A stretch of 20,290 nt of DNA, taken from positions 1 through 20,290 of IMG/VR virus record IMGVR_UViG_3300025276_003456. One strand, given 5' to 3'. Below the pieces are notes generated by a model. The model did not search any database and had not been told where the DNA came from. It saw nothing but the letters and a program-made list of their open reading frames with translations. Position 1 is the stretch's first letter, and the number at the start of each line of letters is the position of its first letter. Source of the stretch: a virus. The position numbers were made by a program, and so were the translations under genes. Shown here piece after piece: positions 378 to 20,290 of the stretch.

Positions 378-556
378 CAGCGTACTACCAATGGCTGAAA
401 ATTTTGTGAGTCATGATAGTCGCCACTGTCGTAATAGTCTCGGCTTGCTGACTCTTTGATCATAGTGCCGTTACGCATACGATATGTTACAATCTCTCTA
501 CGCACAACACCAGTAGTATCAGCTTCAAACGCTGACTTAAAAGGACCTTCGGTCAT
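377..556 (-). CDS. Small conserved phage protein, 59 aa
   Basis: An ORF of 59 codons starts with ATG at 556, whose bases overlap the TGA of folE (ATGA), and ends with TGA at 377, immediately overlapping the ATG of the QueE stub. A Shine-Dalgarno AGGAG lies 8 bases upstream, inside folE. The product is polar with a central VVRREIVTYRMRNGTM segment and a Tyr/Asp-rich tail (RDYYDSGDYHDS). No catalytic motif, signal peptide or membrane segment is visible. It resembles small uncharacterised proteins of marine T4-like phages, but that is recalled family resemblance and not a search. Its place between folE and the queE remnant makes it part of the same operon. Function unknown. Confidence 0.82.
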   Translation of the reverse strand: MTEGPFKSAFEADTTGVVRREIVTYRMRNGTMIKESASRDYYDSGDYHDSQNFQPLVVR

Positions 557-1236
557 TTTGCAAACTCCTGCTGTAGTTTAATATTATCAAAGAATTCTTT
601 CTTTGTACCTGCATCATCTTTAAAAGCACCTTTAAGTACTGTTGTCTGTGTAAGACTGCTAGTTGCCATAATGCCTCTGTTCTCACAACAACCGTGTGTT
701 GCTTGAATATAAACACCTAGGTGTTCTGTATCTGTGGCTAATTGTATTTCTCTGGCAATATCATTTGCAAGTTCTTCTTGTAGTGTTCCGCGCCTAGCAC
801 ACCATTGTGCAATACGTGTGTACTTACTTAGACCAATAAGTTTGTCTGCTGCAATAATACCAATGTATGCTACACCTGCTACTGGCTGGTGATGATGCGA
901 ACACATACTTTTAAGTTCACTACGTACTACTAGCATACCTGCATAGCGATCTGCGCTATCATTAGGAAATGCTGTTGCTGCTGGTGCAGGATCATAACGT
1001 CCTGCCATAATCTCATTGTAGTACATTTTAGCAAGACGCTTTGCAGTACCTTTAGAGTTAGGATCGTTAACACGATCAATTAATAGTGTGTCTAACACAC
1101 TTTCAAATGCTACAGTAGCTTCGTTAATAAGTTTTTCTTTATCGCCTTGTTCTAATACTGCGCTAATGTTGTCACCCGCCCAATAACGCATATCTGCTTT
1201 AATCAGGCGAGCTTTAATTTCGTTTGTTTTAATCAT
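553..1236 (-). CDS. folE: GTP cyclohydrolase I (FolE)
   Basis: A 227-aa protein that converts GTP to 7,8-dihydroneopterin triphosphate, the first step of both folate and 7-deazaguanine (preQ0) synthesis. The family signatures are intact: RSELKSMCSHHHQPVAG (residues 105-121), then GLSKYTRIAQWCARR (135-149) followed by TLQEELA, and HGCCENRGI (181-189). The zinc ligands of the E. coli enzyme (Cys110, His113, Cys181) correspond to Cys112, His115 and Cys183. Length matches the bacterial enzyme. The start at 1236 has a GGAG Shine-Dalgarno about 6 bases upstream. A consensus sigma-70 promoter, a late-type box and a small hairpin precede it. With QueD and the DpdA-like enzyme in the same window, it most likely feeds deazaguanine synthesis for DNA modification and not folate synthesis. 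Confidence 0.97.
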   Translation of the reverse strand: MIKTNEIKARLIKADMRYWAGDNISAVLEQGDKEKLINEATVAFESVLDTLLIDRVNDPNSKGTAKRLAKMYYNEIMAGRYDPAPAATAFPNDSADRYAGMLVVRSELKSMCSHHHQPVAGVAYIGIIAADKLIGLSKYTRIAQWCARRGTLQEELANDIAREIQLATDTEHLGVYIQATHGCCENRGIMATSSLTQTTVLKGAFKDDAGTKKEFFDNIKLQQEFAK

Positions 1237-6877: not shown

Positions 6878-8434
6878 CTAATCAAATAGTTCATCAAATT
6901 TTGCTTCAGCGTTAATTGTTTTCTTGCCAATTTTTAATCTAGTTCCGATAATATGTGTCCAAATACTGTTTGATTGCGTATCAGTTCCGTACTTATTAAT
7001 GACATCAAGACTTTTTTGTCTATCATTTTGTGCAAAAATTTCATCAGCTATGTCTCTGAACTTGTGTTGAGCAAGTGGAGTATCGTAAACCATCATATAA
7101 GGATATTCACCTTTGTCGTATAATTCGTTAGCACGTTGAGTACTTTCAATGTGCATCCATACATTATGGCCCATTTGTAGTGCATAGCTAAATGAATCCC
7201 AACTTGTAGAATCTTTCTTGCGTACAACAGGATTACCTCTGTTATCTAGTATTTGATTGCCGTGTTTATCAATATCAATATCGCCAGCCTTAACTTTAGG
7301 ATGACCAATTTTATTTTTATCACCTTCAGCATAGAAACAAATATCATTCATTTTACAATGTTGACTAATTGGCGATTCTTCAAATGCTGCAAGTATACCT
7401 TCTTGTACAATAGCATTACCAAATTGTCTTGTGTCTGAAGAATATTTTAATGCATCAGCACCTGGTGCCATCATATAACTCCATTTACCTTTATGTTCTG
7501 CCCGAATAGTATGATAAATTTGTCCATTAGCAGTTGCTAAGAAAGGACTAGCACAATCGTATGTAATCATAAAATTCTTATTATGATATTTACGTACTGC
7601 ACGTTGTATATCAGTAAGCAAAGTAGCCCACTCAAGTTTACTTGTACCTAAGAAGTGCATTACATCATGTAATCCTTCTTCAAGTAATCCATCGTGTATC
7701 ATGTGTACAAGTCGTTTTAAAATAAGATGAACATCACACATATTTTGTCCGCCCATTGCCCATCCATCAAAATGCGTATCAGGATATACCTTAGGATCAC
7801 AATAGTCTTTAAACTCTTGATACCAACTTTCTGCATTAGTATGATTACTACCTTGCAGTACATTTAACACTTTAAAGTTGCCACGTCTATTATCCATGTA
7901 ATATCTTGCATTAATATGAGTTGCTGTAACAGCATCGTCATAACTCTTAATATTACTTGCTTCTGAAGCTTTAGGATCTTGGAATGTCCAAGTTGGAATA
8001 TCCAACATCATTCCATAATCCATATATTCTTCCATCCAATTAACAACTAGTTCACGCTTCTTCATTGCCTTCGGGCATGTTTCGCTGGTCCAGTCGCCTT
8101 CCCAAAGTCCTTTAGCAATTTGGAAACCACCTGAGTCGCCCAGCAACCAAGTGTTTTCTCTATCACGATTTCGAACCATATCTTCTTTTTCGCTAAACTT
8201 ATTTGTATCTAATTCAGCATGACCTGCTGAATAGAGCGCCCACTTATAGTGGAACGCTCCTTCTTTAGAATTTAGGAAGTTCATTCCTTCCATTCCGTTT
8301 AATCCGCTAGGAATACGTATAGGATCAACATAATCACTAAATCGTTGCTTGCCTATAAATGTAGCATAAAATCCACTTATACTAGGTAAGAATACAGCAT
8401 AATCGTTTTGTGTTTGTGTTAAGTTTGTTTTCAT
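6878..8434 (-). CDS. dpdA: DpdA-like DNA 7-deazaguanine transglycosylase
   Basis: A 518-aa paralogue of tRNA-guanine transglycosylase. Seen in sequence, with Zymomonas Tgt equivalents: DSGGFQ (residues 100-105; Asp102 region), LDIP (Asp145; Asp156), LQGSN (192-196; VQG with Gln203), AMGGQ (227-230; GGLA), FLGTS (261-265) and TYDCASP (291-297), where Asp293 aligns with the catalytic nucleophile Asp280. The usual zinc motif CxCxxC...H is replaced by Cys360 and Cys366 with a possible ligand in GHN (422-424). Tgt is about 380 aa, so this is longer, as expected for DpdA enzymes that place preQ0 or derivatives in DNA instead of tRNA; DpdA-type is inferred from length, phage context and the co-located folE and queD. 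The start overlaps the clamp stop by one base and has no clear Shine-Dalgarno, so translation is probably coupled to the clamp. Confidence 0.85.
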   Translation of the reverse strand: MKTNLTQTQNDYAVFLPSISGFYATFIGKQRFSDYVDPIRIPSGLNGMEGMNFLNSKEGAFHYKWALYSAGHAELDTNKFSEKEDMVRNRDRENTWLLGDSGGFQIAKGLWEGDWTSETCPKAMKKRELVVNWMEEYMDYGMMLDIPTWTFQDPKASEASNIKSYDDAVTATHINARYYMDNRRGNFKVLNVLQGSNHTNAESWYQEFKDYCDPKVYPDTHFDGWAMGGQNMCDVHLILKRLVHMIHDGLLEEGLHDVMHFLGTSKLEWATLLTDIQRAVRKYHNKNFMITYDCASPFLATANGQIYHTIRAEHKGKWSYMMAPGADALKYSSDTRQFGNAIVQEGILAAFEESPISQHCKMNDICFYAEGDKNKIGHPKVKAGDIDIDKHGNQILDNRGNPVVRKKDSTSWDSFSYALQMGHNVWMHIESTQRANELYDKGEYPYMMVYDTPLAQHKFRDIADEIFAQNDRQKSLDVINKYGTDTQSNSIWTHIIGTRLKIGKKTINAEAKFDELFD

Positions 8435-9184: not shown

Positions 9185-9213
9185 ATTATATTATACATTT
9201 TATGTAAAGTCAA
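9185..9213 (-). promoter_or_regulatory. Sigma-70 promoter for clamp and dpdA
   Basis: Minus-strand TTGACT (9213-9208), a 17-base spacer and a perfect TATAAT (9190-9185). Predicted start is near 9178, just before the clamp Shine-Dalgarno. The -35 box overlaps the TGA stop (9212-9210) of the nucleotidyltransferase gene. Confidence 0.83.
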
Positions 9214-9623
9214 GTGTTTTTCTTACAAACTCGGTCTCTTAAATCAGTTGACGAAAATCGATGATTACGATGATTAAAATACAATTCTATTCCTAATTTT
9301 TGACAAGCATCTTTACCAGTAAAATCTTTATTTTTATATTCATCACCAAGAATACGAATATTAATTGGATACATTTGTAAAATATCAATTAAGTCTGATT
9401 CTGTAGCATAGCATATAATTTCATCAACGTATCTTACAGCAGCAAGTTGGGTGTAGCGTTCTACTACAGTTTGTATAGGTGCATTTTTTTCTTTTCTGTC
9501 AACGGATGGATCTATTTGTAATCCGCATATCAAGTGTTCACATTGTGCTTTAGCTTCACGTAACATACTAATATGTCCAGCGTGAAGTAAATCAAATGTC
9601 GAGGCTGTAAATCCTACCTTCAT
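9210..9623 (-). CDS. Cytidylyltransferase-like nucleotidyltransferase
   Basis: A 137-aa HIGH-superfamily nucleotidyltransferase, similar in size to glycerol-3-phosphate cytidylyltransferase (TagD) and the RfaE/HldE carboxyl domain. Start ATG 9623 has GGAG 8 bases upstream. Features: GFTASTFDLLHAGHISML (about 4-21) with HxGH at 14-17 for the nucleotide triphosphates, VERYTQLAAVRYVDEII (about 61-77), ILGDEYKNKDFTGKD (about 93-107), and FSSTDLRDRV near the end, the 'SST.lR' motif. It would activate a phosphorylated sugar or alcohol with CTP or ATP. The polymerase gene ends one base before the start. Substrate not readable; a link to sugar transfer, lipid precursor or NAD metabolism is possible. 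Confidence 0.87.
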   Translation of the reverse strand: MKVGFTASTFDLLHAGHISMLREAKAQCEHLICGLQIDPSVDRKEKNAPIQTVVERYTQLAAVRYVDEIICYATESDLIDILQMYPINIRILGDEYKNKDFTGKDACQKLGIELYFNHRNHRFSSTDLRDRVCKKNT

Positions 9624-9624
9624 T

Positions 9625-12294
9625 TTAATCTCCAAAATCAAATAAGCTTGAAAAAGTATTATGTCTTTTAGTATCTTCTAGAGGATAATTAAGCACTCCA
9701 ATTAAATTATCTAGTTTATTATCGATAATTACTTCAGCCATTGCTGAATCATCAAATGGAAGTTCTTTAAACCATTCTGGCATACGTAATTCATCTGTTG
9801 GATATGCAACACTTGTATAACCTAGTGGATTAGCTTTTAGTTTACAAACAATAACTTTCATACCGTCAACAATCTCTTGTGAGTACTTGTCTCCGTTCAT
9901 ACGCTTGAGTGTATTCCAGTTAATACTTGCTCGAACGTGTCCGGGCATGTTAGCTCTGCCTTGCTTTTCTTCTAAGCGTCGGTAGTGACCGACTTTGTTT
10001 GCACGTTTAGGCGATCCTTTCTCCCAACCTGGTCTTTCGTTAAACTCCAATCGAAACTGAGTAATTCTTTCAAGAACATTAGCTTGTTCGGCATCAGTAA
10101 GTACCATAAGTAATAGTTCGCTTAAAAATTCTTGCATAAACACAGGCGTGTCTGATCTACGCAAGTCTAACCCCATTGCTTTTACTTTGCCTTGTTTTCC
10201 GTCTGTATCGCTGCGAAATCCTTCAATGTCGTATACTAATGCTGCATAACGTTTCTTAGTAATATACAATCCACTTTGTGCAACAATTTCTCTAGCTGCT
10301 GCAATAACATCGCTACGACTTTTTGGACAGTGAAATGCTTGTAGCATAAAACTTGGAAAAGTAGTATTAGCAGCTTCGCATACTTGATCATATAATGTAA
10401 TTACATTGTCTTTAGACCAAGGAATCTTTCCAGCATCAATATCATCTTTGAGTGTAGGGTATGCACTAAAGTAACAAGAGTCAGTATCGCCATATATCAT
10501 TGCTTTACCTACATGGTCATATTCACCTGTAATAGTCTTATTAACTTCTGCACTCATATGCTTAACAATAGTACGACCAGTTAGTGTTGTACTTTGTCCA
10601 ATACGTTTGTCAAAGAATCTACAACCTGGATTAAGGATAGCACCATACAAACTGTTTAAATTAATCTTCTTAACTAGTTGTCGTTTGTCCCAATACTCGG
10701 TCTCTGCTTCATTACCTGCATCTTTTGCTTTTTTTAGCATCTTCTGCAAGTCTTTACGTTCGCTATACCAACGTTTTAGTAGTCCTGGAATAACACCTTC
10801 GAACTCTGTTGTAAATATTGTTCCATTTGCACTTAGCATCCACGGTCGGTTGCTGTCAAATATTGCATTATATATTTCTGCACCACTTAATACTTCAGTA
10901 TTACCATTTTCAAACTCAACAGTAAGTGCAATGTCCTTACGCTTTTCCATAACTGCTTCGTATTCCTCAGTAGCAAAGCGTCCTTCCCAACTACCTGCAA
11001 ACGATTTTTTCTTAAGAGTCATGTCTTCGTGTACGCGAGCATTACTTATTTCTGGACGTATTTGTCCTATAACTGTTTCGGGCGCCATATTTAATGCACG
11101 AATTACACTAGGATATAGTGAGTTCAAATCCATAGACGCGACCCATTTGTGCAAGCCCTTCTTTGGAAATGCAACATATGCGCCCGCTGCCTGAGTAGCT
11201 TCATCGTCACGTTTCTTACGATTAGGAACTTGCAATCCACGATAATGCGACTCATTAACAATAGCCTGTTCTGTAACAGCCACCGCACCCATAGTTGTTT
11301 GCAGCAACACAGTATTTGCATGAGCAAGTTCATTACTTAAATCAATAAAACGTAGCTTCTTATCTAGTTTGTCAAGTAATGCAGTATCTTGGATGTTATA
11401 TTCAATAAACTTTCTAAAGTCATTGTTGTATAATGAATCTAACGTACCTTCGTATGGTACTTTATTTTCGCCAACTTCAACTTCGCCAATAGCATCAAGT
11501 CTATATGTATGACGCTCTTCGTATGTGTATTTACGATACAAGTTCAAACTGTCTAAGTGTACACGCCCAACTAAATCAAATGTTTGACTGGTCTTACCGT
11601 ATTTTTCGTATTCTCTTTTTCTAGGCAATTGTCCCCATAGACAAAATCGTCTTGTATCATCTTTACTAAGTACACGACTAGTTCTATTTACAGTGTACGG
11701 AATATCGTAACCTTCGCTGTTCCAACCTGATAAAATGTCGGCATCTTCAATTAATGTTAAAAAAGTGTCAATCATTTCACTTTCTTTTTCAAACAACATT
11801 ACATTATCAATGCCTTCAAGTTCGTCTTTAGCTTGATCCATTGTAAGGGTCTTTGGCGGCACAGCCAAGCATATCATTGTTTCTAACCATTGTAGATAAA
11901 CTGATATTGATGTAATTGGCATAAACGGATCACTAGGATCAGCAAAGCCTCGCTCTGGATCAAAATCAGTTTCAATATCAAAAAAACAAATATTTAATTT
12001 TGGTGCATCTTGATTAAGATAGTTTTCACTTAAACATTGAAATATAGGATTAATATCGCTTTCAAATAATTCTTTATCTCTATTAATTGCAACTTCTTTA
12101 CGAAAGTCTTTAGTGTTCTTACACACTATCCGTGTTAGAGGATCGCCATAGATACTCTTATACTTTCCTTTAACATCTTTATAGTAAAATGTATATTTAG
12201 ATTGATATTCTCGGTACAATCTCTTACCGTCTTTACGTTCAACTACTCTAATAATATCAGAGTCTCTGTCGAAATAACCATCGACGTATGCCAT
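9625..12294 (-). CDS. Family B DNA polymerase (T4 gp43-like)
   Basis: The replicative polymerase with 3'-5' proofreading, 889 aa (T4 gp43 is 898). Exonuclease motifs: FFDIET (104-109; Asp106, Glu108), SGWNSEGYDIPY (189-200; Asp197) and YNIQDTALL (299-307; Asp303). Polymerase motifs: A, DLNSLYP (389-395); B, KKINLNSLYG (542-551); C, YGDTDS (601-606; Asp603 and Asp605). The extreme carboxyl end SSLFDFGD resembles the clamp-binding tail of gp43 (SLFDMFDF), which fits the clamp gene downstream. All catalytic residues are present with no intein or intron. ATG 12294 has a GGAGAG Shine-Dalgarno. It is transcribed with the DsbA-like gene from the promoter at 12610-12638. Confidence 0.97.
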   Translation of the reverse strand: MAYVDGYFDRDSDIIRVVERKDGKRLYREYQSKYTFYYKDVKGKYKSIYGDPLTRIVCKNTKDFRKEVAINRDKELFESDINPIFQCLSENYLNQDAPKLNICFFDIETDFDPERGFADPSDPFMPITSISVYLQWLETMICLAVPPKTLTMDQAKDELEGIDNVMLFEKESEMIDTFLTLIEDADILSGWNSEGYDIPYTVNRTSRVLSKDDTRRFCLWGQLPRKREYEKYGKTSQTFDLVGRVHLDSLNLYRKYTYEERHTYRLDAIGEVEVGENKVPYEGTLDSLYNNDFRKFIEYNIQDTALLDKLDKKLRFIDLSNELAHANTVLLQTTMGAVAVTEQAIVNESHYRGLQVPNRKKRDDEATQAAGAYVAFPKKGLHKWVASMDLNSLYPSVIRALNMAPETVIGQIRPEISNARVHEDMTLKKKSFAGSWEGRFATEEYEAVMEKRKDIALTVEFENGNTEVLSGAEIYNAIFDSNRPWMLSANGTIFTTEFEGVIPGLLKRWYSERKDLQKMLKKAKDAGNEAETEYWDKRQLVKKINLNSLYGAILNPGCRFFDKRIGQSTTLTGRTIVKHMSAEVNKTITGEYDHVGKAMIYGDTDSCYFSAYPTLKDDIDAGKIPWSKDNVITLYDQVCEAANTTFPSFMLQAFHCPKSRSDVIAAAREIVAQSGLYITKKRYAALVYDIEGFRSDTDGKQGKVKAMGLDLRRSDTPVFMQEFLSELLLMVLTDAEQANVLERITQFRLEFNERPGWEKGSPKRANKVGHYRRLEEKQGRANMPGHVRASINWNTLKRMNGDKYSQEIVDGMKVIVCKLKANPLGYTSVAYPTDELRMPEWFKELPFDDSAMAEVIIDNKLDNLIGVLNYPLEDTKRHNTFSSLFDFGD

Positions 12295-12317
12295 TTACTC
12301 TCCTAAATACTTATTAA

Positions 12318-12584
12318 TTATGCGTCAGAATCGTAACCGACTGTTGCAACAATAGTTTCAAGATCGTCAAATTCGTCTTTTACTCTATTCCAGTCACGTT
12401 TTTGTGCAACTTTAATTGCTTTGTTGATCAAACTAGGTTTAATATTTAGTTCTTCGGCTACAGCCTTAACAGTATCTTTTAAAGAAGATTGTAAATCTTC
12501 TACTTCTTGCATCACGCTAACTGCTTCGCTTACAAGTCTTTCAAGTTTTGCCTTTTCGTCGACGCCATATACACGGTCGCTCAT
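12318..12584 (-). CDS. DsbA-like late-transcription modulator
   Basis: An 88-aa helical protein close to the size of T4 DsbA (89 aa), a small double-stranded DNA-binding protein that works at late promoters. The pattern LSSLKDTVKAVAEEL-like helix followed by NIKPSLINKAIKVAQKRD and an acidic end (DEFDDLE) parallels DsbA's 'KDELGVDGKMFNRLLALYHKDN' arrangement. It begins with SDRVYGVDEKAKLERLV and is charged throughout. GGAGG Shine-Dalgarno upstream of ATG 12584. It is the first gene after a consensus promoter and precedes the polymerase. The match is by layout and recall of the family, so a different helical DNA-binding protein is possible. Confidence 0.58.
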   Translation of the reverse strand: MSDRVYGVDEKAKLERLVSEAVSVMQEVEDLQSSLKDTVKAVAEELNIKPSLINKAIKVAQKRDWNRVKDEFDDLETIVATVGYDSDA

Positions 12585-12609
12585 ATAGTTCCTCCATTAG
12601 TTTAAATTA

Positions 12610-12638
12610 ATTATATAACATAGTTTATTAAATGTCAA
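12610..12638 (-). promoter_or_regulatory. Sigma-70 promoter for DsbA-like gene and polymerase
   Basis: Minus-strand TTGACA (12638-12633), a 17-base spacer and TATAAT (12615-12610): both hexamers match consensus exactly. Predicted start is near 12603, upstream of the GGAGG of the DsbA-like gene. Confidence 0.9.
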
Positions 12639-12643
12639 TGTTT

Positions 12644-13240
12644 TTATTTAACAAACGCACCAATACGTCCGTGTATGTCTGGATAATCTCTATATGTATA
12701 TCCGGAAGGAGGAATTATACATTCTCCTTCCCATACTGGTATAAATTCATCAATGTTGCCATCAAAGTCTTCATTATGTCTAAAGTGAATTTCTATTACT
12801 TTGTTATCTATGTATTCAACATTAATCCATTTATGATGTGCAAATGTACGCAGTTCAAATGGTAATGGAATATCGTCATTGGTGCGTACCCATTTATCCC
12901 AATGAATAAATGTATCTGATTCTTTGTGGCCTTCGACACACAACTGCTGTACGCCGTAACGATAATCAACACTTAGGTGTATTCCTTCAAACCATTCACA
13001 CCAAAAATGTCCAATAGGCAGATGCATTGTTTCTTTATCTAGCCATACCTGCTGTGCGCCTAGACCTAATCCTAGCATGTTAACACACGGTCGTACAATA
13101 TAAACACCAGCTACTGGAACATCTAACCCAGTAGGTCCACAATTGTATCCTAATTTACGAGACAGTATTAGTTTGTCTAACGCCCACAATTCGTTAGCAT
13201 TAATATTACGCCATACATAATCTTCAGCACTATCGTCCAT
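12644..13240 (-). CDS. ATP-grasp-like hypothetical protein, 198 aa
   Basis: A 198-aa soluble protein with GVYIVRPCVNMLGLGLGA (about residues 46-63), GHFWCEWFEGIHLSVDYRYG (about 77-96), WINVEYIDNKVIEIHFRHN (about 138-156) and a closing YRDYPDIHGRIGAFVK. The order resembles the carboxyl part of ATP-grasp folds, where a glycine-rich nucleotide loop and an E-x-H/N metal-binding strand follow each other, but no canonical ATP-grasp motif is certain. It begins with ATG 13240, 12 bases after the 71-aa gene. A TATAAATA box ends four bases before the ATG, so a transcript from it would be almost leaderless. A strong Shine-Dalgarno is not visible. Function unknown; possibly an amide- or peptide-bond ligase-like protein. 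Confidence 0.75.
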   Translation of the reverse strand: MDDSAEDYVWRNINANELWALDKLILSRKLGYNCGPTGLDVPVAGVYIVRPCVNMLGLGLGAQQVWLDKETMHLPIGHFWCEWFEGIHLSVDYRYGVQQLCVEGHKESDTFIHWDKWVRTNDDIPLPFELRTFAHHKWINVEYIDNKVIEIHFRHNEDFDGNIDEFIPVWEGECIIPPSGYTYRDYPDIHGRIGAFVK

Positions 13241-13532: not shown

Positions 13533-14585
13533 TTATTGCAGTTTTTTTAATTTTTTAGATAACTTGGTTTTATATGCAGTTATAGCCGATTCACTCATAG
13601 TAACCATTGGCACATCAGCCTCGGACATACTAGACTGATCATAATCTATGCTATGATAAACTGAACTAATATAATCAGCTGATTTGGTAATTTTAGCCTG
13701 TTGCCAGCCTTCAATGCCTTCGGCTTCACTTACATGCTTCAACATTTCGTGCAGCTTAATAGCATATTTTGCAAGTTTGTACAAGTCGGCTCTTGCCATT
13801 TGTACTTCATGATCACGTTCCACAATATCAGCCATACTACCAAGGCCTTCGTTTGTTAGTTCTGTTTCTGTAAATGATTTACTTTTATCTAACATTACAA
13901 GTGTTGGGCCAAATTTTTGTGTGCTGCTTTCACTTTCTACCCAGTTACGGAACTTGCGATATAAGTCAGGTTCCATAACAAATTGTTTTAGCGCAGGACG
14001 ATATGCTTGTAACATTTTTTTAGCAAGTTTGTTTCTTGGTGCCGTGTCATTTAAAAAATTCATTATATTTCGATTATCAACTGAAAAGTACTTTATAGTT
14101 TTTTCAGGATCTTGACGACCTTTGCCTGTTAACGCACTTGCAGCATGTCCTGCCGGAAGACGTTTTTTACCCGGGCCGTCGCTATCAAATGGATTTTCAG
14201 GCTTTTCGTCTTCGGGTCTATATTTTACTTCAACTTTTTCAGCATATGCTTTGCTACTTAAAGTATCTAGAGCTTTGTCAAGATGGGGAAATACTTTCTC
14301 GGCAATTCTAGGATTTTCAATATATAAAACTAATTTTTTAGGTATTCTAGTACCTTTAAATAATGATCGAACAGCATCTACAATAGCTTTATCAGTATTC
14401 AAATTCATAAATCTTACAGTTTCTTTGTCACCATCTTTTACATCCATTGGATTTTGTCTAAATCCTGCATAGGCCATTAGTTTGCCTTTGCCTTTGTCCA
14501 TAGTCTGTATTTTTTTAGCCTTGAATCGCATGTACATTATGCTATCGTTGTCTTCATCTAAGGTTGTGTGTATTTCGCTGCTCAT
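13533..14585 (-). CDS. Probable virion-associated protein, 350 aa
   Basis: The start is the ATG at 14585, 8 bases after GGAG; an ATG two codons earlier lies too close to that site. The amino part has YMRFKAKKIQTMDKGKGKLM, then NLNTDKAIVDAVRSLFKGTR and KKLVLYIENPRIAEKVFPHL, an alpha/beta region. A Pro/Gly/Lys-rich linker (DSDGPGKKRLPAGH) leads to a helical carboxyl half with a GWQQAKITKSADYISSVYHS motif that I recall from virion and prohead proteins of marine T4-like phages. No enzyme motif is evident. A late-type box (14604-14611) precedes it, which suits a structural role. Its position downstream of the leader-bearing genes suggests a head or internal protein; exact function unknown. Confidence 0.72.
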   Translation of the reverse strand: MSSEIHTTLDEDNDSIMYMRFKAKKIQTMDKGKGKLMAYAGFRQNPMDVKDGDKETVRFMNLNTDKAIVDAVRSLFKGTRIPKKLVLYIENPRIAEKVFPHLDKALDTLSSKAYAEKVEVKYRPEDEKPENPFDSDGPGKKRLPAGHAASALTGKGRQDPEKTIKYFSVDNRNIMNFLNDTAPRNKLAKKMLQAYRPALKQFVMEPDLYRKFRNWVESESSTQKFGPTLVMLDKSKSFTETELTNEGLGSMADIVERDHEVQMARADLYKLAKYAIKLHEMLKHVSEAEGIEGWQQAKITKSADYISSVYHSIDYDQSSMSEADVPMVTMSESAITAYKTKLSKKLKKLQ

Positions 14586-14603
14586 AATCATTACTCCTAC
14601 AGT

Positions 14604-14611
14604 TATTTATC
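14604..14611 (-). promoter_or_regulatory. Late-type promoter box before 350-aa gene
   Basis: The minus strand reads GATAAATA (one mismatch to TATAAATA), overlapping the TAA stop of the 60-aa gene and about 19 bases before the chosen ATG. The GGAG of the 350-aa gene lies just beyond, consistent with a short late leader. Confidence 0.4.
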
Positions 14612-14789
14612 TTTTTAGAGTTGCACCAGTGAATAAATTTGTATTCTTATTTAATGCATTATCAGTTGGTTTTTGCATTTTAGGTTTCTTTTTACTCCTT
14701 GCTACTATAGGATTAGCAACACTAGCAACAGCACCTGCTGAAGTTCCGCCTGATGTAGCAGTTTCGTTTGTAATTTCGTGTATCTTCAT
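14607..14789 (-). CDS. Small leader-bearing protein, 60 aa
   Basis: A 60-aa protein that begins MKIHEITNETATSGGTSAG and continues with a low-complexity Ala/Val/Lys/Pro region (AGAVASVANPIVARSKKKPK). The first 10 residues match the leader pattern (MKIxEI.xE) of the neighbouring proteins, like the capsid-targeting sequence of T4 internal proteins. The basic remainder would suit a DNA-associated protein packed in the head. It starts 4 bases after the ADP-ribosyltransferase-like gene with a weak AAAGG Shine-Dalgarno. No conserved domain. Confidence 0.68.
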   Translation of the reverse strand: MKIHEITNETATSGGTSAGAVASVANPIVARSKKKPKMQKPTDNALNKNTNLFTGATLKR

Positions 14790-14793
14790 TAGA

Positions 14794-15678
14794 TTAACCT
14801 TTGTTTTGCTTAGGATAGTATATTTCGCCTGTGTTTATATTTTCAATCTTAGTTATTCTTGTTTTACCTTTGAATTTAACATCTCGATTAATTCTTCTTG
14901 CTGCTGAACCTGATTCTTTTCGTGAATCGGTTGTATCAGGACTAACCTGTGGCATCAACTTAGCTAGTAAGTCTTCCATAGTTTCTCTAAATGTATGATA
15001 TGCATCAAAACTAACTGCATTCCAACGGTCCCTAGCATCTTTGTACGTACTAGCATTTTGTAATAACTTTAGTGCCATTTGTTTTATTAACGGGCCTGCA
15101 GCTTTTCTAGGCTGCGCATTATTACGTAATATTTTTATAGTTTGATTCATAATCATATCTGCAGATTTGTCAGCATTTTTAATCATCCAATCAGTAGCCC
15201 ACCCTTGATTAGGATAACTTAGATCTGAATATTGATCTTTTTCTTCAGGTTCTAACGGATCGTCGGTTGCCCAACTAATAGGAGGGTCTTGTGGCCTAGT
15301 TGGTGCTTTTAATGATATTTTACTCATAACCTGTTGTGCAGCATCACTAATACTAGAAACTATTTCGTCTTCGTCGAGATCTGACGAACCTTTTGCATAT
15401 TGTAGTGTAACTAGTGCTTTTTCGCCGCCGTGTGATCCAACTGCTTCGTCGGCAATAGTTTCTGCAAACTCTCTATTATGAGCAACATATACTCCGCCCA
15501 TACTAGCTGTACTTGCACCATATGTATCTGCACTATATGTTTTCTTAGGAGGAGTTGCTAATAATCCATTTTTTAGTATACTGCGCACTAGGTTGGTACT
15601 AGTACCGTGATACATTATTTCTGTACGCTGCTGTTGACGTTCATTTAAATGTACAAATACTATTTCTGAAAATCGCAT
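14794..15678 (-). CDS. ADP-ribosyltransferase-like protein with head leader
   Basis: A 294-aa protein. Residues 1-12 (MRFSEIVFVHLN) look like a capsid-targeting leader ending in LNE, similar to the L/I-x-E cleavage sites of T4 prohead protease. From residue 22 comes MYHGTS followed by LVRSILKNGLL, then GGVYVAHNREFAETIAD (61-77). This is the first strand and helix (H-G-T-S) and second strand (G-V-Y-V-A...F-A) of ADP-ribosyltransferase folds of the H-Y-E type; candidate residues are His24, Tyr64 and perhaps Glu285 in TGEIYYP near the end. The family moves ADP-ribose from NAD to a protein or nucleic acid; T4 Alt does this to host RNA polymerase after injection. The start overlaps the previous stop by one base (TAATG). 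An alternative start at Met22 (15615) would lack the leader. The catalytic Glu is uncertain. Confidence 0.6.
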   Translation of the reverse strand: MRFSEIVFVHLNERQQQRTEIMYHGTSTNLVRSILKNGLLATPPKKTYSADTYGASTASMGGVYVAHNREFAETIADEAVGSHGGEKALVTLQYAKGSSDLDEDEIVSSISDAAQQVMSKISLKAPTRPQDPPISWATDDPLEPEEKDQYSDLSYPNQGWATDWMIKNADKSADMIMNQTIKILRNNAQPRKAAGPLIKQMALKLLQNASTYKDARDRWNAVSFDAYHTFRETMEDLLAKLMPQVSPDTTDSRKESGSAARRINRDVKFKGKTRITKIENINTGEIYYPKQNKG

Positions 15679-16202
15679 TAGGAAGCGCCTACTAATTTAC
15701 CACGTAGAGGATGTTTGGTTTCGCCACTTCTACTAACCTTTGATTTCTTAGGCATAGGATCAGATCCTTTTGCATGATCGGCATGTTTATATTCACTTTC
15801 GGCGTGCATAGCTGCCATATGCTTTTTGTATTTTGCAGTACCTTTTTTATGCGGACTTTTACCTTCGTCGACTTTGTTCCACATTCTATCGCCAACTTTT
15901 TCAAAGTATCTTTTTATTACAACTCCGCCAAGAATGAGGGCAACTGCCATTCCAATTTCAAATTTATTTTCAATTAACATCTGAGCCATTTCTTCACCAA
16001 TTTGGCCTTTAACCCATTCCCACCCTTGATCAATTGCTGCAAGTGCAGCAGCACCTGTTGCTAGTTTTGTACCAAATTTACGCAATACCCATTTAAGAAA
16101 CGGCCACGCTCCTTTTGCAATTACCCACCGTAATACCCAAATAGCTGCCACAACTGGTAATGCTTCGTCAACTCGTTGTTCGGTAATTTCTTTAATTTTC
16201 AT
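15678..16202 (-). CDS. Leader-bearing membrane-active protein, 174 aa
   Basis: A 174-aa protein starting MKIKEITEQRVDEALP, a leader like its neighbours, possibly cut after VDE. Then a hydrophobic/amphipathic segment (AAIWVLRWVIAKGAWPFLKW, about 19-38), an Ala-rich helix, and a second hydrophobic segment (GMAVALILGGVVIKRYF, about 84-100). The carboxyl third is polar and rich in Lys, His and Ser (GTAKYKKHMAAMHAESEYKH). Two membrane-capable segments after a packaging leader suggest a protein carried in the virion and inserted in the host envelope during entry. No recognised family. ATGA overlap with the 63-aa gene upstream. Confidence 0.7.
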   Translation of the reverse strand: MKIKEITEQRVDEALPVVAAIWVLRWVIAKGAWPFLKWVLRKFGTKLATGAAALAAIDQGWEWVKGQIGEEMAQMLIENKFEIGMAVALILGGVVIKRYFEKVGDRMWNKVDEGKSPHKKGTAKYKKHMAAMHAESEYKHADHAKGSDPMPKKSKVSRSGETKHPLRGKLVGAS

Positions 16203-16390
16203 CTTTGCCTCCGCAAGCCAGTGATAACAGTTGATCTTCCGTATTGTGCTATTAGTATTGCTCTTGCTGATTGTATTGTTCTTGCACTAACTTGTACAGG
16301 AATTGTTTGAGAATAAAACTTCTGTTTAACCTTTACATATGCTGTAAAGATATCAAACCCACTATTAACTTTAATTTCTCTTAATAACAT
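16199..16390 (-). CDS. Small leader-like basic protein, 63 aa
   Basis: A 63-aa basic protein beginning MLLREIKVNSGFDIFTAY, a weaker match to the leader pattern. The rest includes VQVSARTIQSARAILIAQYG followed by RSTVITGLRRQR, an alpha/beta arrangement with an Arg-rich end. It directly abuts the stop of the 89-aa gene (TAG then ATG) and overlaps the next gene by ATGA. Likely conserved in related phages, function unknown. Confidence 0.68.
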   Translation of the reverse strand: MLLREIKVNSGFDIFTAYVKVKQKFYSQTIPVQVSARTIQSARAILIAQYGRSTVITGLRRQR

Positions 16391-16660
16391 CTAGTATTTA
16401 TTCCAATCAAAGAGTTTATGTTTTTCTTTTGCAACTTCGTCTAATGTGTGACCACCTTCGATTATTGCCCATTCGCTAGCAGTATAACGTGCTTCTTTTA
16501 CTTTACCGTTTGTGCGTAGGAAAGGAGGAACTCCGTTTTTTGTTACTTTATGTCCAAGTTTGTTTGCTTCAATTGAAGTTTGATTAACACCTACGTCAAC
16601 TGTAGTATTAACACCCTTTACAATACGTCCAACAGCTTCATCTAAGTCGTTTATTTTCAT
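16391..16660 (-). CDS. Leader-like hypothetical protein, 89 aa
   Basis: An 89-aa protein beginning MKINDLDEAVGRIVKGVNTT, in which the first residues (MKINDLDEA) resemble the leader family with a possible L-D-E/A cleavage site. It has a polar middle (SIEANKLGHKVTKNGVPPFL) and an end with SEWAIIEGGHTLDEVAKEKH. ATGA overlap with the 66-aa gene. No catalytic motif seen. Confidence 0.68.
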   Translation of the reverse strand: MKINDLDEAVGRIVKGVNTTVDVGVNQTSIEANKLGHKVTKNGVPPFLRTNGKVKEARYTASEWAIIEGGHTLDEVAKEKHKLFDWNKY

Positions 16661-16857
16661 ATCGGTTTTTCACCTGTTAAATGAGGCTGACTAAACCAAA
16701 GCTTAAACCATTCGTTAGTGCCGGGTTTGATATTTTTTTTACGTTGTATCTGTGCCTTTTCAGTGCCAGTAACACTCATGTTTTCAGGAACATAAGTTGT
16801 GAACCCTGTAAACTTATTTTTAATACCAGCAAGGTGTTGTAAGTCTTCTATATTCAT
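16657..16857 (-). CDS. Small conserved phage protein, 66 aa
   Basis: A 66-aa protein beginning MNIEDLQHLAGIKNKFTGF and ending NIKPGTNEWFKLWFSQPHL followed by TGEKPI. The PGTxEWFKLWFS-P-LTGEKP ending is a compact aromatic motif I recall from small proteins of marine T4-like phages. Both ends overlap neighbours by ATGA, so it is translated with them. Function unknown. Confidence 0.7.
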   Translation of the reverse strand: MNIEDLQHLAGIKNKFTGFTTYVPENMSVTGTEKAQIQRKKNIKPGTNEWFKLWFSQPHLTGEKPI

Positions 16858-18008
16858 TTTATTCTAGGTTCTACTGGACGCGGATGTTTTGATATCATTG
16901 GTCTTGGACGAAGATCCAAATTTGGCTTTAGTTTGTTAGCTTGTCTTATTTTTCCCGGAGTAGGCTTACCAGCAATAGGACCAGGCTCAACAGGAGGTTT
17001 TTCTTTAGTCATCGGCGGTTCAGGTCGTTTTGCATTTGGATCAATGCCTTTGAATTTTCTATAAGCCTTTTTAAATACATTATATGTTAGTTTTGCACCT
17101 TTAAGACCAGCTAATGTCATAAGACCGTTTGCAGCATCGGCACCTAGTTTGTCTATAAGTTGGTCTTTGGTAATTTCTTTTTTCTCAAACTTTTTAAGAG
17201 CTTTGTACATTTGATAAGCTGTGTAAGTTACATTTGCTACTTCAAATACTCCTATTATCATAGGAATAATTGCTGGACCTACTTCATTAAGTTTTGCTTC
17301 ATTAATTTTATAACATTCACAATGTTTACAATCTTTACCACATGTACATTCTGTAACAGGTTCGCCGCAACATTTCTTGCTGCACATTTCAACACCATCT
17401 TTTGTCCATGTTTTTTTATCTTCTGCAATAATTTCAAATATTTTCATGTTATTATGCACCCCAGTGATACTTTCGTAAAATGGGTTCTTAGGATCTGCGT
17501 CATTTGATTCATCGCTCCACCAATCTAATTCATATCGTTTGCCGTCTTCAAACTGTTTCTTCATTGCAAGTATGCGGCGTTCGTATTCTTCTTTAACTGG
17601 TTCTACTCTACCTGCTACAACATCCATAACAAAATTTAGTGTAGTTGCATTAGCTGTTAAACTTCCACATCTTGCGCCTACTTCATTCTTTAAGTGGTCA
17701 ATTAATATACTGCCACTACATTTCGCTAGTTCGTCACTTAGCTCTTCAGGAACTTCTAAGTCAACATAACAATAAACAAAGTCATAGTGCGGCGCCGGCG
17801 ATCCGTGTAGTATGTACTCGTCTCTCACAACTACTCTTTTAAATCCATCAATATTTTGCCATACAGTTTGCTCATTTGTAAACTGTTCAGGTTTACCAAA
17901 TGTTTTTTCCAGGTACTGACTGTACTCAACTGGATATTCATGATCCCAATTATCATAACTTACTTCTTGTTCTTCTTTAATTGACTGTTTAAATTCTACG
18001 AATCTCAT
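16854..18008 (-). CDS. Two-part protein with two leaders and Cys-rich region
   Basis: A 384-aa protein. Part 1 (1-187) begins MRFVEFKQSIKEEQEVSYDN, a capsid-leader-like start, followed by an unrecognised domain with Asp/Tyr-rich segments and DELAKCSGSILIDHLKNEVG (about 92-111). At Met188 a second leader starts, MKIFEIIAEDKK, strikingly close to the T4 internal-protein leader MKTYQEFIAEA. It is followed by eight Cys in residues 209-232 (MCSKKCCGEP..., CTCGKDCKHCEC), a likely metal-binding knuckle, then KINEAKLNE with two IxE/LxE sites and a hydrophobic stretch GPAIIPMIIGVFEVANVTYT (244-263). The end is basic and Pro-rich. GGGGTG lies 9 bases before the Met188 codon (17447), so the second part could also be made separately or the gene may be a fusion. 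The ATG overlaps the small ORF upstream (ATGA). Confidence 0.72.
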   Translation of the reverse strand: MRFVEFKQSIKEEQEVSYDNWDHEYPVEYSQYLEKTFGKPEQFTNEQTVWQNIDGFKRVVVRDEYILHGSPAPHYDFVYCYVDLEVPEELSDELAKCSGSILIDHLKNEVGARCGSLTANATTLNFVMDVVAGRVEPVKEEYERRILAMKKQFEDGKRYELDWWSDESNDADPKNPFYESITGVHNNMKIFEIIAEDKKTWTKDGVEMCSKKCCGEPVTECTCGKDCKHCECYKINEAKLNEVGPAIIPMIIGVFEVANVTYTAYQMYKALKKFEKKEITKDQLIDKLGADAANGLMTLAGLKGAKLTYNVFKKAYRKFKGIDPNAKRPEPPMTKEKPPVEPGPIAGKPTPGKIRQANKLKPNLDLRPRPMISKHPRPVEPRIK

Positions 18009-18172
18009 TTTTTACTCCAGTAAGCTAAACGTTCATTAGTACTTAGTCTAGCTTTTTCGTGTTCTTTGTGTTTTTCAACATATTTTTTCATCTCAGCATT
18101 TCGCCATTGCCGGCTGTATCCGTCAGGATATTCTTTGATTATTTCTTTCCACTTTTCATGTTCGCACACCAA
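18005..18172 (-). CDS. Small overlapping ORF, 54-55 aa, non-ATG start
   Basis: A short frame, 2 bases off that of the preceding large gene, ends with a TGA that overlaps the ATG of the 384-aa gene (ATGA). It fills the otherwise empty 130 bases between the two genes. The carboxyl 48 residues are charged and helical (KEIIKEYPDGYSRQWRN, then EMKKYVEKHKEHEKARL and a YWSKK end). An in-frame TAA about 13 codons upstream of the putative start limits the frame. TTG at 18172 or GTG at 18169 lies 7-10 bases after a GAGGA Shine-Dalgarno; the first ATG (18091) would give only 28 aa and no good Shine-Dalgarno. Coupling at both ends supports a real gene. Its amino part overlaps the end of the CCA-type protein. 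No homologue recognised. Confidence 0.55.
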   Translation of the reverse strand: MVCEHEKWKEIIKEYPDGYSRQWRNAEMKKYVEKHKEHEKARLSTNERLAYWSKK

Positions 18173-20290
18173 TGATACATCCTCGCTTTCTCGCCACTTG
18201 CATTTTTAGCACGTTTGCGTAGTGCTGTAACACTACCATTGCAACTAGCACCTGAACGTTTTACACGTCCTGGTCTGCTTTTGCCTTTTTTCTTACCGTC
18301 GGCAAAGTTTTCAGGTACTGGTTCATATCCAGGCTCGGCTTTTTCCTTTGGATTAACAAGTAAAAAGTTTGTAGTACTTCCGGCATGTATAGATTTCTTT
18401 GTAAGTCTAAATCCTATTGCTGCTGCAAACTGTTTTCCAAATCTCTGATATAGTCGTTCTCGTCCTCCAGCATTTTCTTTACTTGCTGAAAACTCTATAG
18501 ACTTTACAGGGTAATAAGTGAAATTATGGCTCATTTCTTTCCACCAGTCTTTAATAATTGCAATTACTGTAGCAAATATCTGATGTGCTCGTCCACCACC
18601 TGTTGTAATCATTTCACCGTCTACTCTAAATTCAATCTCCCAATCACCATCTTCGTGAAAATCATTAATGGAGACTAGAAGTGTAGGTGCACCACGCACT
18701 GCGCTTTTGCCTTCAAAATTAAATTCACTAGAATGAGTGATAGTATAAGGAAGTACACTATCCAATGACTCAGTAACATCGTCTCTTAATTTTTTCCTAC
18801 GCCTGCGGCCTGAAGCTTTTGCTGCTTTATAACTTTTTTTATATTTTTTAGACTTTAATTTTTCGTCAATCTTTTGAGTACTTTCGCCAAGCAGTTGATC
18901 TTTTGTAGCTTTATATCCACTTTGTTTCCATTTTTGTTTTAATAAATTTAATTTTTTACCTAAGTCTGGCCCTTTTTTAAATCCAGCTTGTATAAGATCA
19001 TTTCCATTAACTGGAAATACTGGTGCTTCAAAACTTTTAATATGGTTAGCAAAAATTTCGTACTTGCCTAACATTTGAGCCCATCTATATAGTAGTATTT
19101 TTGGAGTGCCATCAACTATCATATCTGACAGTATTTTTTTGTCTATAGGTGAATTCGCATGTTCAACTAAAAATTTAAGTATATTGTTGTCAACATTACT
19201 AAGTTTCCAACGTTTGCCGATACTAGCATCGCCCAGTCTTGCAAGATTTACTAATTCGTAGTCTCCGTCAACCATTGCACTAATATTTTTATTAGATAAT
19301 CCTATTGTTTTTAAAATTCCTGTACTAGACATTGCTGTTAGTATTTTTGCAATATTATTTCCAGATAAAATTTTACCCATTTCCATCCACACACGTTCAA
19401 CACTTACTTTTGTAAGTCCTGTGGCGTTAGCTTTTATTGCTTGTAGCGTTTCTTTTTCAAATTTAGGATTATCAAGCCTACCTTGGAATCTAAAGTAGCG
19501 TAGTATACGCAAGTAATCTTCTTGTATACGCCCAGCAGGATCGCCAACAAAACGACTTACTTTATTTTGCAAGTCATCCATGCCGTTGTGGTAATCAAAT
19601 AAGTTTCCGTCAAAGTCCATGCTCATAGCATTGTATGTTAGGTCTCTGCGTAGTGCATCTTGTTCCCATGAACGCACAAATTCTACTGTAGCATGTCTGC
19701 CATCTGTTTCGGCATCAGAACGTAACGTAGTTATTTCAAATTCTTCGCCGTTGATTATAGCAGTAATAGTACCATGTTCAATTCCTGAGGGTATGTGCTT
19801 AATACCAGCACTATCAAACATTTTCTGCATTTCTACAGGAGTTGCATCAGTAGCAAGATCGATATCCTTTGGTGCTTTGTTTAGTACAACATCTCTAACA
19901 GCACCGCCTACAATTCTTATTTCAAATTTATTCTTAGTAAACAATTTGTTTAGCTGTTGCATTTCAGAAGTAATAGGTATTTTATACTCTTCGCTTTCGT
20001 TAATGCTTTCTTTAACTTGATTAGGTCTACGTAACATAAATTTATGCATTCTTGCAATAGCTTGGTCTGCATACTCAAAATTGTTTGCAGTAGCAAATTT
20101 TTTTACTAATTTTTTATATAACTCAATTCTGCTGTCTTTAATATCTTTGCTAGTACGTGCTTCGCCTTCGCGGTGTGCATCAAATTGTATACTTTCAACT
20201 TCACGATGTTCGTCCATAAATTGTTTTATAGCTGATATAACACTCGAAAATACTCTGTATTCGTCTCCCATTCCTGTACGCTTTACTTCA
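18139..20290 (-). CDS. CCA-adding/poly(A) polymerase-type phage protein, start outside window
   Basis: An open frame of more than 710 codons that runs past the right edge; residue numbers count from the first in-window ATG (20271), which is probably not the true start. Residues about 1-65 match a second copy near 565-635 (see findings). Residues about 100-330 are an intact class II CCA-adding enzyme/poly(A) polymerase head and neck: GGAVRD (122-127), DIDLAT (136-141; catalytic Asp136, Asp138), RRDLTYNAMSMD (208-219) and EDYLRILRYFRF (251-262). It adds nucleotides to RNA 3' ends in known members. VKESINESEE (86-95) and DDVTES (about 496-501) resemble linker/cleavage sites. A Lys/Arg-rich stretch (about 473-498) separates the domains. 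The end carries a paired-Cys motif (Cys677, and MYHWCANMKSGKK with Cys702). Substrate could be tRNA or a phage RNA. Confidence 0.85.
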   Translation of the reverse strand, partial: EVKRTGMGDEYRVFSSVISAIKQFMDEHREVESIQFDAHREGEARTSKDIKDSRIELYKKLVKKFATANNFEYADQAIARMHKFMLRRPNQVKESINESEEYKIPITSEMQQLNKLFTKNKFEIRIVGGAVRDVVLNKAPKDIDLATDATPVEMQKMFDSAGIKHIPSGIEHGTITAIINGEEFEITTLRSDAETDGRHATVEFVRSWEQDALRRDLTYNAMSMDFDGNLFDYHNGMDDLQNKVSRFVGDPAGRIQEDYLRILRYFRFQGRLDNPKFEKETLQAIKANATGLTKVSVERVWMEMGKILSGNNIAKILTAMSSTGILKTIGLSNKNISAMVDGDYELVNLARLGDASIGKRWKLSNVDNNILKFLVEHANSPIDKKILSDMIVDGTPKILLYRWAQMLGKYEIFANHIKSFEAPVFPVNGNDLIQAGFKKGPDLGKKLNLLKQKWKQSGYKATKDQLLGESTQKIDEKLKSKKYKKSYKAAKASGRRRRKKLRDDVTESLDSVLPYTITHSSEFNFEGKSAVRGAPTLLVSINDFHEDGDWEIEFRVDGEMITTGGGRAHQIFATVIAIIKDWWKEMSHNFTYYPVKSIEFSASKENAGGRERLYQRFGKQFAAAIGFRLTKKSIHAGSTTNFLLVNPKEKAEPGYEPVPENFADGKKKGKSRPGRVKRSGASCNGSVTALRKRAKNASGEKARMYHWCANMKSGKK

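What the first reader, a model, noticed from the sequence alone, without database searches (positions are those of the whole stretch)
14607..18008. A cluster of proteins sharing a capsid-targeting leader
At least four consecutive genes start with near-identical short leaders (MKIHEI, MRFSEI, MKIKEI, MRFVEF; also internal MKIFEIIAE and the weaker MLLREI, MKINDL). These resemble T4 internal-protein leaders (MKTYQEFIAE). Several are followed by I/L-x-E sites such as KINEAKLNE and HLNE that fit the prohead protease. The operon would encode a set of injected effectors with diverse cargo.
Basis: partly seen in the sequence, partly recalled or inferred. Interest (0 to 1): 0.78.

Follow-up and report, generated by a model that had tools for sequence, protein, structure and literature searches.

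The report
Capsid-tagged protein cassette in marine phages
A run of neighbouring genes in an uncultured marine giant-phage relative all begin with the same short tag, which very probably sends their different proteins into the growing virus head and is then cut off, so that the virus can carry ready-made proteins into the next cell.

Summary
All seven genes in 14607-18008 (minus strand) start M-x-[FIL]-x-[ED]-[FIL]; none of 21 other window genes does. In relatives, this leader occurs at 65 of 1202 gene starts but 18 of 6448 internal Met, and a [IL]xE site follows within residues 8-20 in 42 of 65, against 164 of 1094 other genes.

Three lines tie the leader to the head. (1) The 60-aa protein (14607-14789) continues, right after its leader's Glu, with a copy of the mature N-terminal arm of the major capsid protein (TNE|TATSGGTSAGAVASV vs MCP LSE|SATAGATSAGNVATL); three relatives carry both on one contig. 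(2) The gene at T4 gene-67 position, next to portal and prohead protease, starts with the same leader. (3) In cyanophage S-CREM2, T4-type leaders mark virion-detected non-structural proteins (4/15) and no undetected protein (0/126), including a cytidylyltransferase, a cargo type that carries the leader here.

So this is a T4 IP/CTS-like packaging cassette: a new variant of a known kind. Cleavage, packaging and injection are inferred; not every product need be an effector (the 60-aa protein looks capsid-related, the 294-aa one is a probable ADP-ribosyltransferase).

The parts
14607..14789 (-). 60-aa protein: leader MKIHEITNE, predicted cut after E9, then an MCP-arm copy TATSGGTSAGAVASVANP, basic linker, tail NALNKNTNLFTGATLKR
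   Evidence: 28.3 bits to the MCP-arm PSSM; 0/5000 shuffles; family in 10 contigs
14794..15678 (-). 294-aa probable ADP-ribosyltransferase (PARP-like, YHGTS motif); leader MRFSEIVFVHLNE, predicted cut NE|R just before RQQQRTEIMYHGTS
   Evidence: PF00644 sub-threshold in five relatives; leader varies in sequence and length, E-R-x-QQRT-x-IMYHGTS kept
15678..16202 (-). 174-aa protein: leader MKIKEITEQRVDE, hydrophobic segments, basic KSPHKKGTAKYKKHMAAMHAE module, C-terminal KHPLRGKLVG
   Evidence: modules recur on other leader proteins in G008 and G031
16199..16390 (-). 63-aa protein, weak leader MLLREI; homologue MLIRELQ... in G031
16391..16660 (-). 89-aa protein, leader MKINDLDE, GRIVKGVNTTVDV module
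   Evidence: module follows MKFKELAE, MKIYEILKE, MRFSEIRE in relatives
16657..16857 (-). 66-aa protein, weak leader MNIEDL; KKNIKPGTNEWFKLWF module
   Evidence: (same module after MKINEIFE in G003)
16854..18008 (-). 384-aa protein, leader MRFVEFKQSIKEE; contains a second in-frame leader
17430..17447 (-). internal leader MKIFEI(IAE) inside the 384-aa ORF, followed by a Cys-rich segment and KINEAKLNE sites; a separate gene in G003
18139..20290 (-). CCA-adding-enzyme ORF cut by the contig end; in relative G011 the full 878-aa protein starts MKINDVTLQEG (leader-like)

Best explanation
The cluster is a capsid-cargo cassette working like the T4 internal-protein system. Each product carries an N-terminal capsid-targeting leader (consensus M-[KR]-[ILF]-x-E-[IFL], then h-x-E at residue 8-13). 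The leader docks the protein in the prohead core through the i/i+3 hydrophobic pair around the Glu, which matches T4 Tyr4/Phe7. The gp21-type prohead protease cuts after [IL]-x-E, leaving mature cargo in the head, which then enters the next cell with the DNA. Shown here: leader enrichment, modularity (same cargo with different leaders, same leader on unrelated cargo), site enrichment, the leader on a head-operon gene, and the MCP-arm copy after the leader. Supported by a published virion proteome of a distant T4-like isolate: leader-tagged non-structural proteins are in virions. Inferred: docking, cleavage, packaging and ejection in this virus, and cargo functions (probable ADP-ribosyltransferase acting on host macromolecules; small basic proteins that may line or condense the head contents; possibly a CCA-adding enzyme for tRNA repair).
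For:: enrichment of leader and of [IL]xE; among 78 non-redundant leaders E5 occurs in 61 (background 10%), E8 in 22 and E9 in 18 (7%); contigs G014, G015 and G031 carry polB, MCP, gp21 and the array together; the MCP cut site L[SA]E|[STQ]ATAGATSAGN recurs after the leader in the small array protein (46.7 bits in G015, 37.5 in G014, 28.3 in the window lineage; shuffled G015 proteome maximum 12.9; second only to the MCP itself in G014 and G015); the ~70-90-aa gene at T4 gene-67 position starts with the leader in 56/57 distinct sequences (loose pattern; all-gene background 119/1577). ART orthologues have different leaders but keep E|R-x-QQRT; in S-CREM2 a pattern derived from T4 alone hits 4/15 virion-detected non-structural proteins, 0/11 structural and 0/126 undetected (p 9e-5), including cytidylyltransferase MKNFSSFLTE|A...FGRYNPPHKGH; this cargo type also bears the leader here (G011 MKLRQLFESTNSVGLIFGRFNPPHKGH); a cytidylyltransferase was found in S-SM1 virions (PMC3037559). 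(PMC9026906): ten CTS residues suffice for packaging in T4; residues 4 and 7 target, 8 and 10 affect processing.
Against: No proteomics for this uncultured lineage. Two window leaders (MNIEDL, MLLREI) lack a clear hxE by residue 20, and 20 of 78 leaders overall lack one within residues 7-21. The leader is one residue shorter than in T4, and only one window leader (the internal MKIFEIIAE) scores high against the T4 CTS. Head genes of the window's own genome are not known; linkage comes from relatives (polB 62-67% identical in G014/G015, ART 54% in G031). Some leader-type starts lie outside the arrays, consistent with chance.
Confidence: 0.83

Rival explanations
1. The leader targets proteins to the head, but the products are mainly structural or scaffolding head proteins (lining, DNA-condensing, core) rather than injected effectors.
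For: The gene-67-position protein and the 60-aa MCP-arm protein carry the leader; several products are small and basic.
Against: Leader genes in relatives carry enzyme domains (probable ART; cytidylyltransferase/NT5C; AAA_33/Zeta-type kinase; CCA enzyme in G011). Published virion proteomes list enzymes of this kind.
Confidence: 0.3
2. The leader is a docking tag for another phage structure or intracellular complex (tail, replication complex, membrane), not the head.
For: The array lies beside replication genes (polB) rather than the head operon; no virion data for this lineage.
Against: Same leader on a conserved head-operon gene; MCP-arm copy right behind the leader; [IL]xE sites like the MCP cut site; S-CREM2 structural proteins lack the T4-spaced leader (0/11).
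Confidence: 0.08
3. The similarity reflects translation-initiation preferences (AT-rich codons after ATG) or recent gene duplication, with no targeting role.
For: Genome is 35% GC; AAA/ATT codons are common; array genes are tightly overlapping.
Against: Column-shuffled starts give 7.3 expected against 65; E at position 5 is not explained by initiation; synonymous codons differ; cargos are unrelated; orthologous cargo bears different leaders.
Confidence: 0.03

Closest known systems
T4 internal proteins IPI, IPII, IPIII with the capsid-targeting sequence (CTS)
   Same: Short N-terminal leader with K at residue 2, hydrophobic-x-x-hydrophobic spaced i/i+3 around a Glu, then h-x-E; clustered non-homologous cargo genes; small basic products.
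   Different: Leader one residue shorter and mostly I/F rather than T-Y/F; array is larger (about a dozen genes in G011), placed next to polB; relatives include enzyme cargo and there is an MCP-arm protein; cleavage not shown.
T4 Alt and phage head-packaged ADP-ribosyltransferases (PMC9503650)
   Same: A probable ART among capsid-tagged products.
   Different: Sequence resembles the PARP/KptA-like H-Y class rather than Alt; no MuF or portal fusion, only a leader. ART assignment is sub-threshold.
Virion-associated enzymes of cyanomyoviruses (S-CREM2, S-SM1: cytidylyltransferase, SAM hydrolase, APH-like kinase)
   Same: Leader with [FL]LTE/LEE site, cytidylyltransferase cargo (FGR-x-NPP-x-x-GH), T4-superfamily virion.
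   Different: Leader has T4 spacing there; in the passages read the authors name no leader and leave contamination open.
Gene at T4 gene-67 position (PHROG 13986, unknown function)
   Same: Begins with the same leader (MILRELF, MKLVELFE, MRYNEF).
   Different: Conserved single gene of the head operon, no cargo.

Membership tests
T4-type internal proteins / CTS cargo | Shared ~10-residue N-terminal leader on non-homologous proteins | tested here: met
T4-type internal proteins / CTS cargo | [LI]-x-E prohead-protease site ending the leader | tested here: met
   Enriched 42/65 vs 164/1094; absent in some members
T4-type internal proteins / CTS cargo | Virus encodes a gp21-type prohead protease and an MCP with the same cut-site type | tested here: met
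   In relatives G014, G015, G031, beside the MCP; not in the window fragment
T4-type internal proteins / CTS cargo | Same residue spacing as the T4 CTS (M-K-T-[YF]-x-E-F-h-x-E) | tested here: not met
   Leader is one residue shorter; so a variant, not filed as an IP family member by sequence
T4-type internal proteins / CTS cargo | Presence in the virion with leader removed | not testable with these tools
   No proteome of this lineage; only indirect support from S-CREM2
T4-type internal proteins / CTS cargo | Ejection into the host | not testable with these tools
   needs experiment
ADP-ribosyltransferase (PARP-like) for 14794-15678 | Match to the catalytic-domain profile above cut-off | tested here: not met
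   PF00644 E 1.7e-5 to 6e-3, 16.6-24.9 bits against a 26.7 cut-off in the window protein and relatives
ADP-ribosyltransferase (PARP-like) for 14794-15678 | Conserved H and Y in the expected motifs (YHGTS; GGVYVA) | tested here: met
   H24 and Y64 invariant in six aligned sequences
ADP-ribosyltransferase (PARP-like) for 14794-15678 | ART fold | tested here: inconclusive
   AF2 mean pLDDT 59.6; no significant Foldseek match; DarT1, PARP13 and PARP1 only among low-Z rows

The most novel reading that the evidence does not exclude
The 60-aa protein family is a capsid-arm mimic: the leader brings it into the prohead, the protease exposes an N-terminus that copies the freshly cut N-terminal arm of the major capsid protein, and this arm docks into the same site of the shell, pinning a basic tail (and perhaps DNA or cargo) to the inner capsid wall. 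Related leader proteins with the arm copy behind a Cys-rich segment (G006, G008) would be variants of the same anchor.
Probability: 0.3. Interest if true: 0.78.

Novelty: new variant of a known kind. Interest (0 to 1): 0.63.

Why it matters
It gives a sequence rule for finding head-packaged proteins in an abundant, uncultured group of T4-superfamily phages (552 polB-bearing stretches in one scan), where most genes have no annotation. It links the leader to the prohead itself (gene-67-position protein, MCP-arm copy), which makes the docking question testable, and it flags unannotated genes, including a probable ADP-ribosyltransferase, as candidates for first-minute host takeover or counter-defence.

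Tried and rejected
Exact window-type leader in T4, S-PM2, P-SSM2, Atu_ph07, Phosso: at or near control level, so the precise motif is lineage-specific; T4-like isolates use their own spacing. Pfam Gp23 and Peptidase_S77 searches in the first relatives found nothing, control silent too, so protein queries were used instead. tblastn of the ART, 174-aa and 384-aa proteins in isolated phages: no useful hit. ART structure: low confidence and no clear PDB match, which does not exclude the fold. PDB profile search: nothing. Window-type pattern in S-CREM2: no enrichment (1/15 vs 2/126); only the T4-spaced form marks virion proteins there. Papers on capsid targeting in cyanophages: only a T4 review. 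Considered and rejected: signal peptides for secretion (leaders are short, acidic at position 5, without a hydrophobic core); translation bias (column shuffles).
Full report
Setting. The window is a 20.3-kb IMG/VR fragment. Its family-B DNA polymerase is closest among isolates to the jumbo phages Phosso and Atu_ph07 (49 and 45% identity), and 552 stretches in viral contigs encode relatives. It is thus part of a large, uncultured T4-superfamily group. Genes 14607-18008 run on the minus strand, overlap by 1-4 bases or are separated by a few bases, and mostly lack the GGAG-type ribosome sites found before many other window genes.

The observation. All seven array genes begin M-x-[FIL]-x-[ED]-[FIL]; none of 21 other genes does. 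That pattern was chosen after seeing the genes, so the test on relatives matters more: in 11 related contigs with gene calls made here, M[KR]hx[EDQ]h occurs at 65/1202 first-ATG starts and at 18/6448 internal Met; column shuffling predicts 7.3. Position 5 is E in 61/78 distinct leaders (the pattern requires E, D or Q there). A site [IL]xE with E at residue 8-20 occurs in 42/65 leader proteins against 164/1094 others. The contigs are related, so p-values overstate independence.

Place. In G011, G012, G001, G006, G031 and others the leader genes lie between clpA/dnaJ and polB; G003/G004 have the array elsewhere in part, and G031 has a second cluster at 230-249 kb.

Modularity. The same module follows different leaders: GRIVKGVNTTVDV after MKINDLDEAV (window), MKFKELAED (G001), MKIYEILKED (G006), MRFSEIRED (G008); KKxIxPGTxEWFxxWF after MNIEDLQHLAG (window) and MKINEIFEN (G003). 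The ART orthologues read MRFSEIVFVHLNE|RQQQRTEIMYHGTS (window), MKAFEIINE|RVQQRTQIMYHGTS (G003), MRYSEIAE|RKQQRTEIMYHGTS (G031), and in G032 the same ERQQQRT joint follows a long unrelated domain. Leader sequence and length change; the E-R joint does not. The window has one nucleotidyltransferase-like gene without leader (9210-9641, MKVGFTASTFDLLHAGH), and the near-identical G011 has another with leader (MKLRQLFESTNSVGLIFGRFNPPHKGH). The CCA enzyme stands alone in G003 and follows a leader-bearing N-terminus in G011. The internal MKIFEIIAE of the 384-aa ORF is a gene start in G003.

Link to the head. G014, G015 and G031 carry polB, array, MCP and gp21 homologue on one contig. Their MCPs have the propeptide end KYL[SA]E| followed by [SQ]ATAGATSAGN[VI]ATLN. 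A PSSM of this arm, built from MCPs only, was run over all predicted proteins: in G014 and G015 the best hit is the MCP (57, 55 bits) and the second is the small array protein, directly behind its leader (37.5, 46.7 bits); in G011 and G012 the top hit is the 60-aa protein of the window family (28.3 bits). The shuffled G015 proteome reaches at most 12.9. In G031 (not in that scan) the pair reads SE|SATAGATSAGNIATLN and IE|SASAGATGASGIATVV. In G006 and G008 a Cys-rich leader protein carries the arm copy further in, after VTE or TNE. G003, G007, G009 and G010 have only remote or no arm similarity in the positional homologue. The cut site in these MCPs is inferred from homology with T4-type processing, not measured.

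The gene between portal and prohead core/protease, at the place of T4 gene 67 and of similar size (about 70-90 aa), starts with the leader in 56/57 distinct sequences (MILRELF in the marine group, MKLVELFE in Vibrio phage 2.275, MRYNEF in Phosso, MKLTEL in Atu_ph07), against 119/1577 of all gene starts for the same loose pattern. These are orthologues, so the count is not of independent events, but conservation of the leader across such distance argues for function. The family is PHROG 13986, unknown function.

Outside evidence. T4 leaders were read from the reference genome: IPII and IPIII MKTYQEFIAE|A, gp24 MAKINELLRES. In T4 the first ten residues of IPIII suffice for packaging, residues 4 and 7 matter for targeting and 8 and 10 for processing (PMC9026906). 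Shifted by one residue, window I3/I6 fall on T4 Y4/F7 and E9 on E10. For S-CREM2, whose virion proteome is published (PMC10665884), the T4-derived pattern .[KR].[FYLI]..[FLI]..E hits SAM hydrolase, ORF13, APH-like kinase and cytidylyltransferase, all virion-detected, and none of 126 undetected proteins in the 100 kb examined. Sullivan et al. (PMC3037559) also found a cytidylyltransferase in S-SM1 virions. Thus cargo of a type that bears the leader in this group is virion-associated in cyanophages. The S-CREM2 authors leave open that such enzymes are contaminants; the leader association argues against that. T-even internal proteins share nothing but the leader and block type IV restriction enzymes after injection (PMC12373910).

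Cargo. The 294-aa protein has sub-threshold PARP matches in all relatives scanned (16.6-24.9 bits) and invariant H24 and Y64; the fold model is weak and searches inconclusive. 'Probable ADP-ribosyltransferase' is as far as this goes. In G021, a 543-kb relative, leader genes include two more proteins with a YHFTS- or YHGSS-like motif (by eye only). Elsewhere in the group, leader proteins carry CTP_transf_like plus NT5C, DUF6267 and AAA_33/Zeta-type kinase domains.

Verdict. Capsid targeting with protease removal of the leader is the best explanation (0.83). Ejection and effector roles follow from T4 precedent and are inferred. By spacing the leader is not the T4 CTS, so the system is filed as a new variant of the known kind, not as a member of the IP families. 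The least expected part is the MCP-arm copy.

Noticed in passing
window 13533-14591; G011 11824-12883: The 352-aa ORF is split into two frames in the nearly identical relative G011: a frameshift mutation or an assembly error.
   Followed up: no
window 18139-20290: The CCA-adding enzyme ORF also seems to hold two copies of an unknown domain (near its start and near its C-terminus) and a basic C-terminal module (GKSRPGRVKRSGASCNGSVTALRKRAKNASGEKARMYHWCANMKSG) that in G014 sits right after a leader.
   Followed up: partly
window 553-1236, 1794-2312, 6878-8434: A GTP cyclohydrolase I-like, a phosphoribosyltransferase-like and a large TGT/DpdA-like gene suggest 7-deazaguanine metabolism or DNA modification (by eye; related jumbo phages have annotated queuosine-pathway genes).
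   Followed up: no
window 14607-18008: Array genes mostly lack the GGAG Shine-Dalgarno motif seen upstream of many other window genes and overlap by 1-4 nt, suggesting translational coupling.
   Followed up: partly
G031 contig 230026-248860 and 302593-303324: A second leader-gene cluster, far from polB, holds the ART in this 330-kb relative, plus a lone leader-bearing P-loop kinase.
   Followed up: partly
G021 contig 7-58 kb: A 543-kb relative has a strand-mixed set of leader genes including two further ART-like sequences (40185-40808, 57101-58048).
   Followed up: no
MCP N-termini, loci L175-L236: The MCP propeptide itself often begins M-S-[EQ]-L-[LF]-E-S, resembling the core of the leader; it may dock to the same core site.
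   Followed up: no
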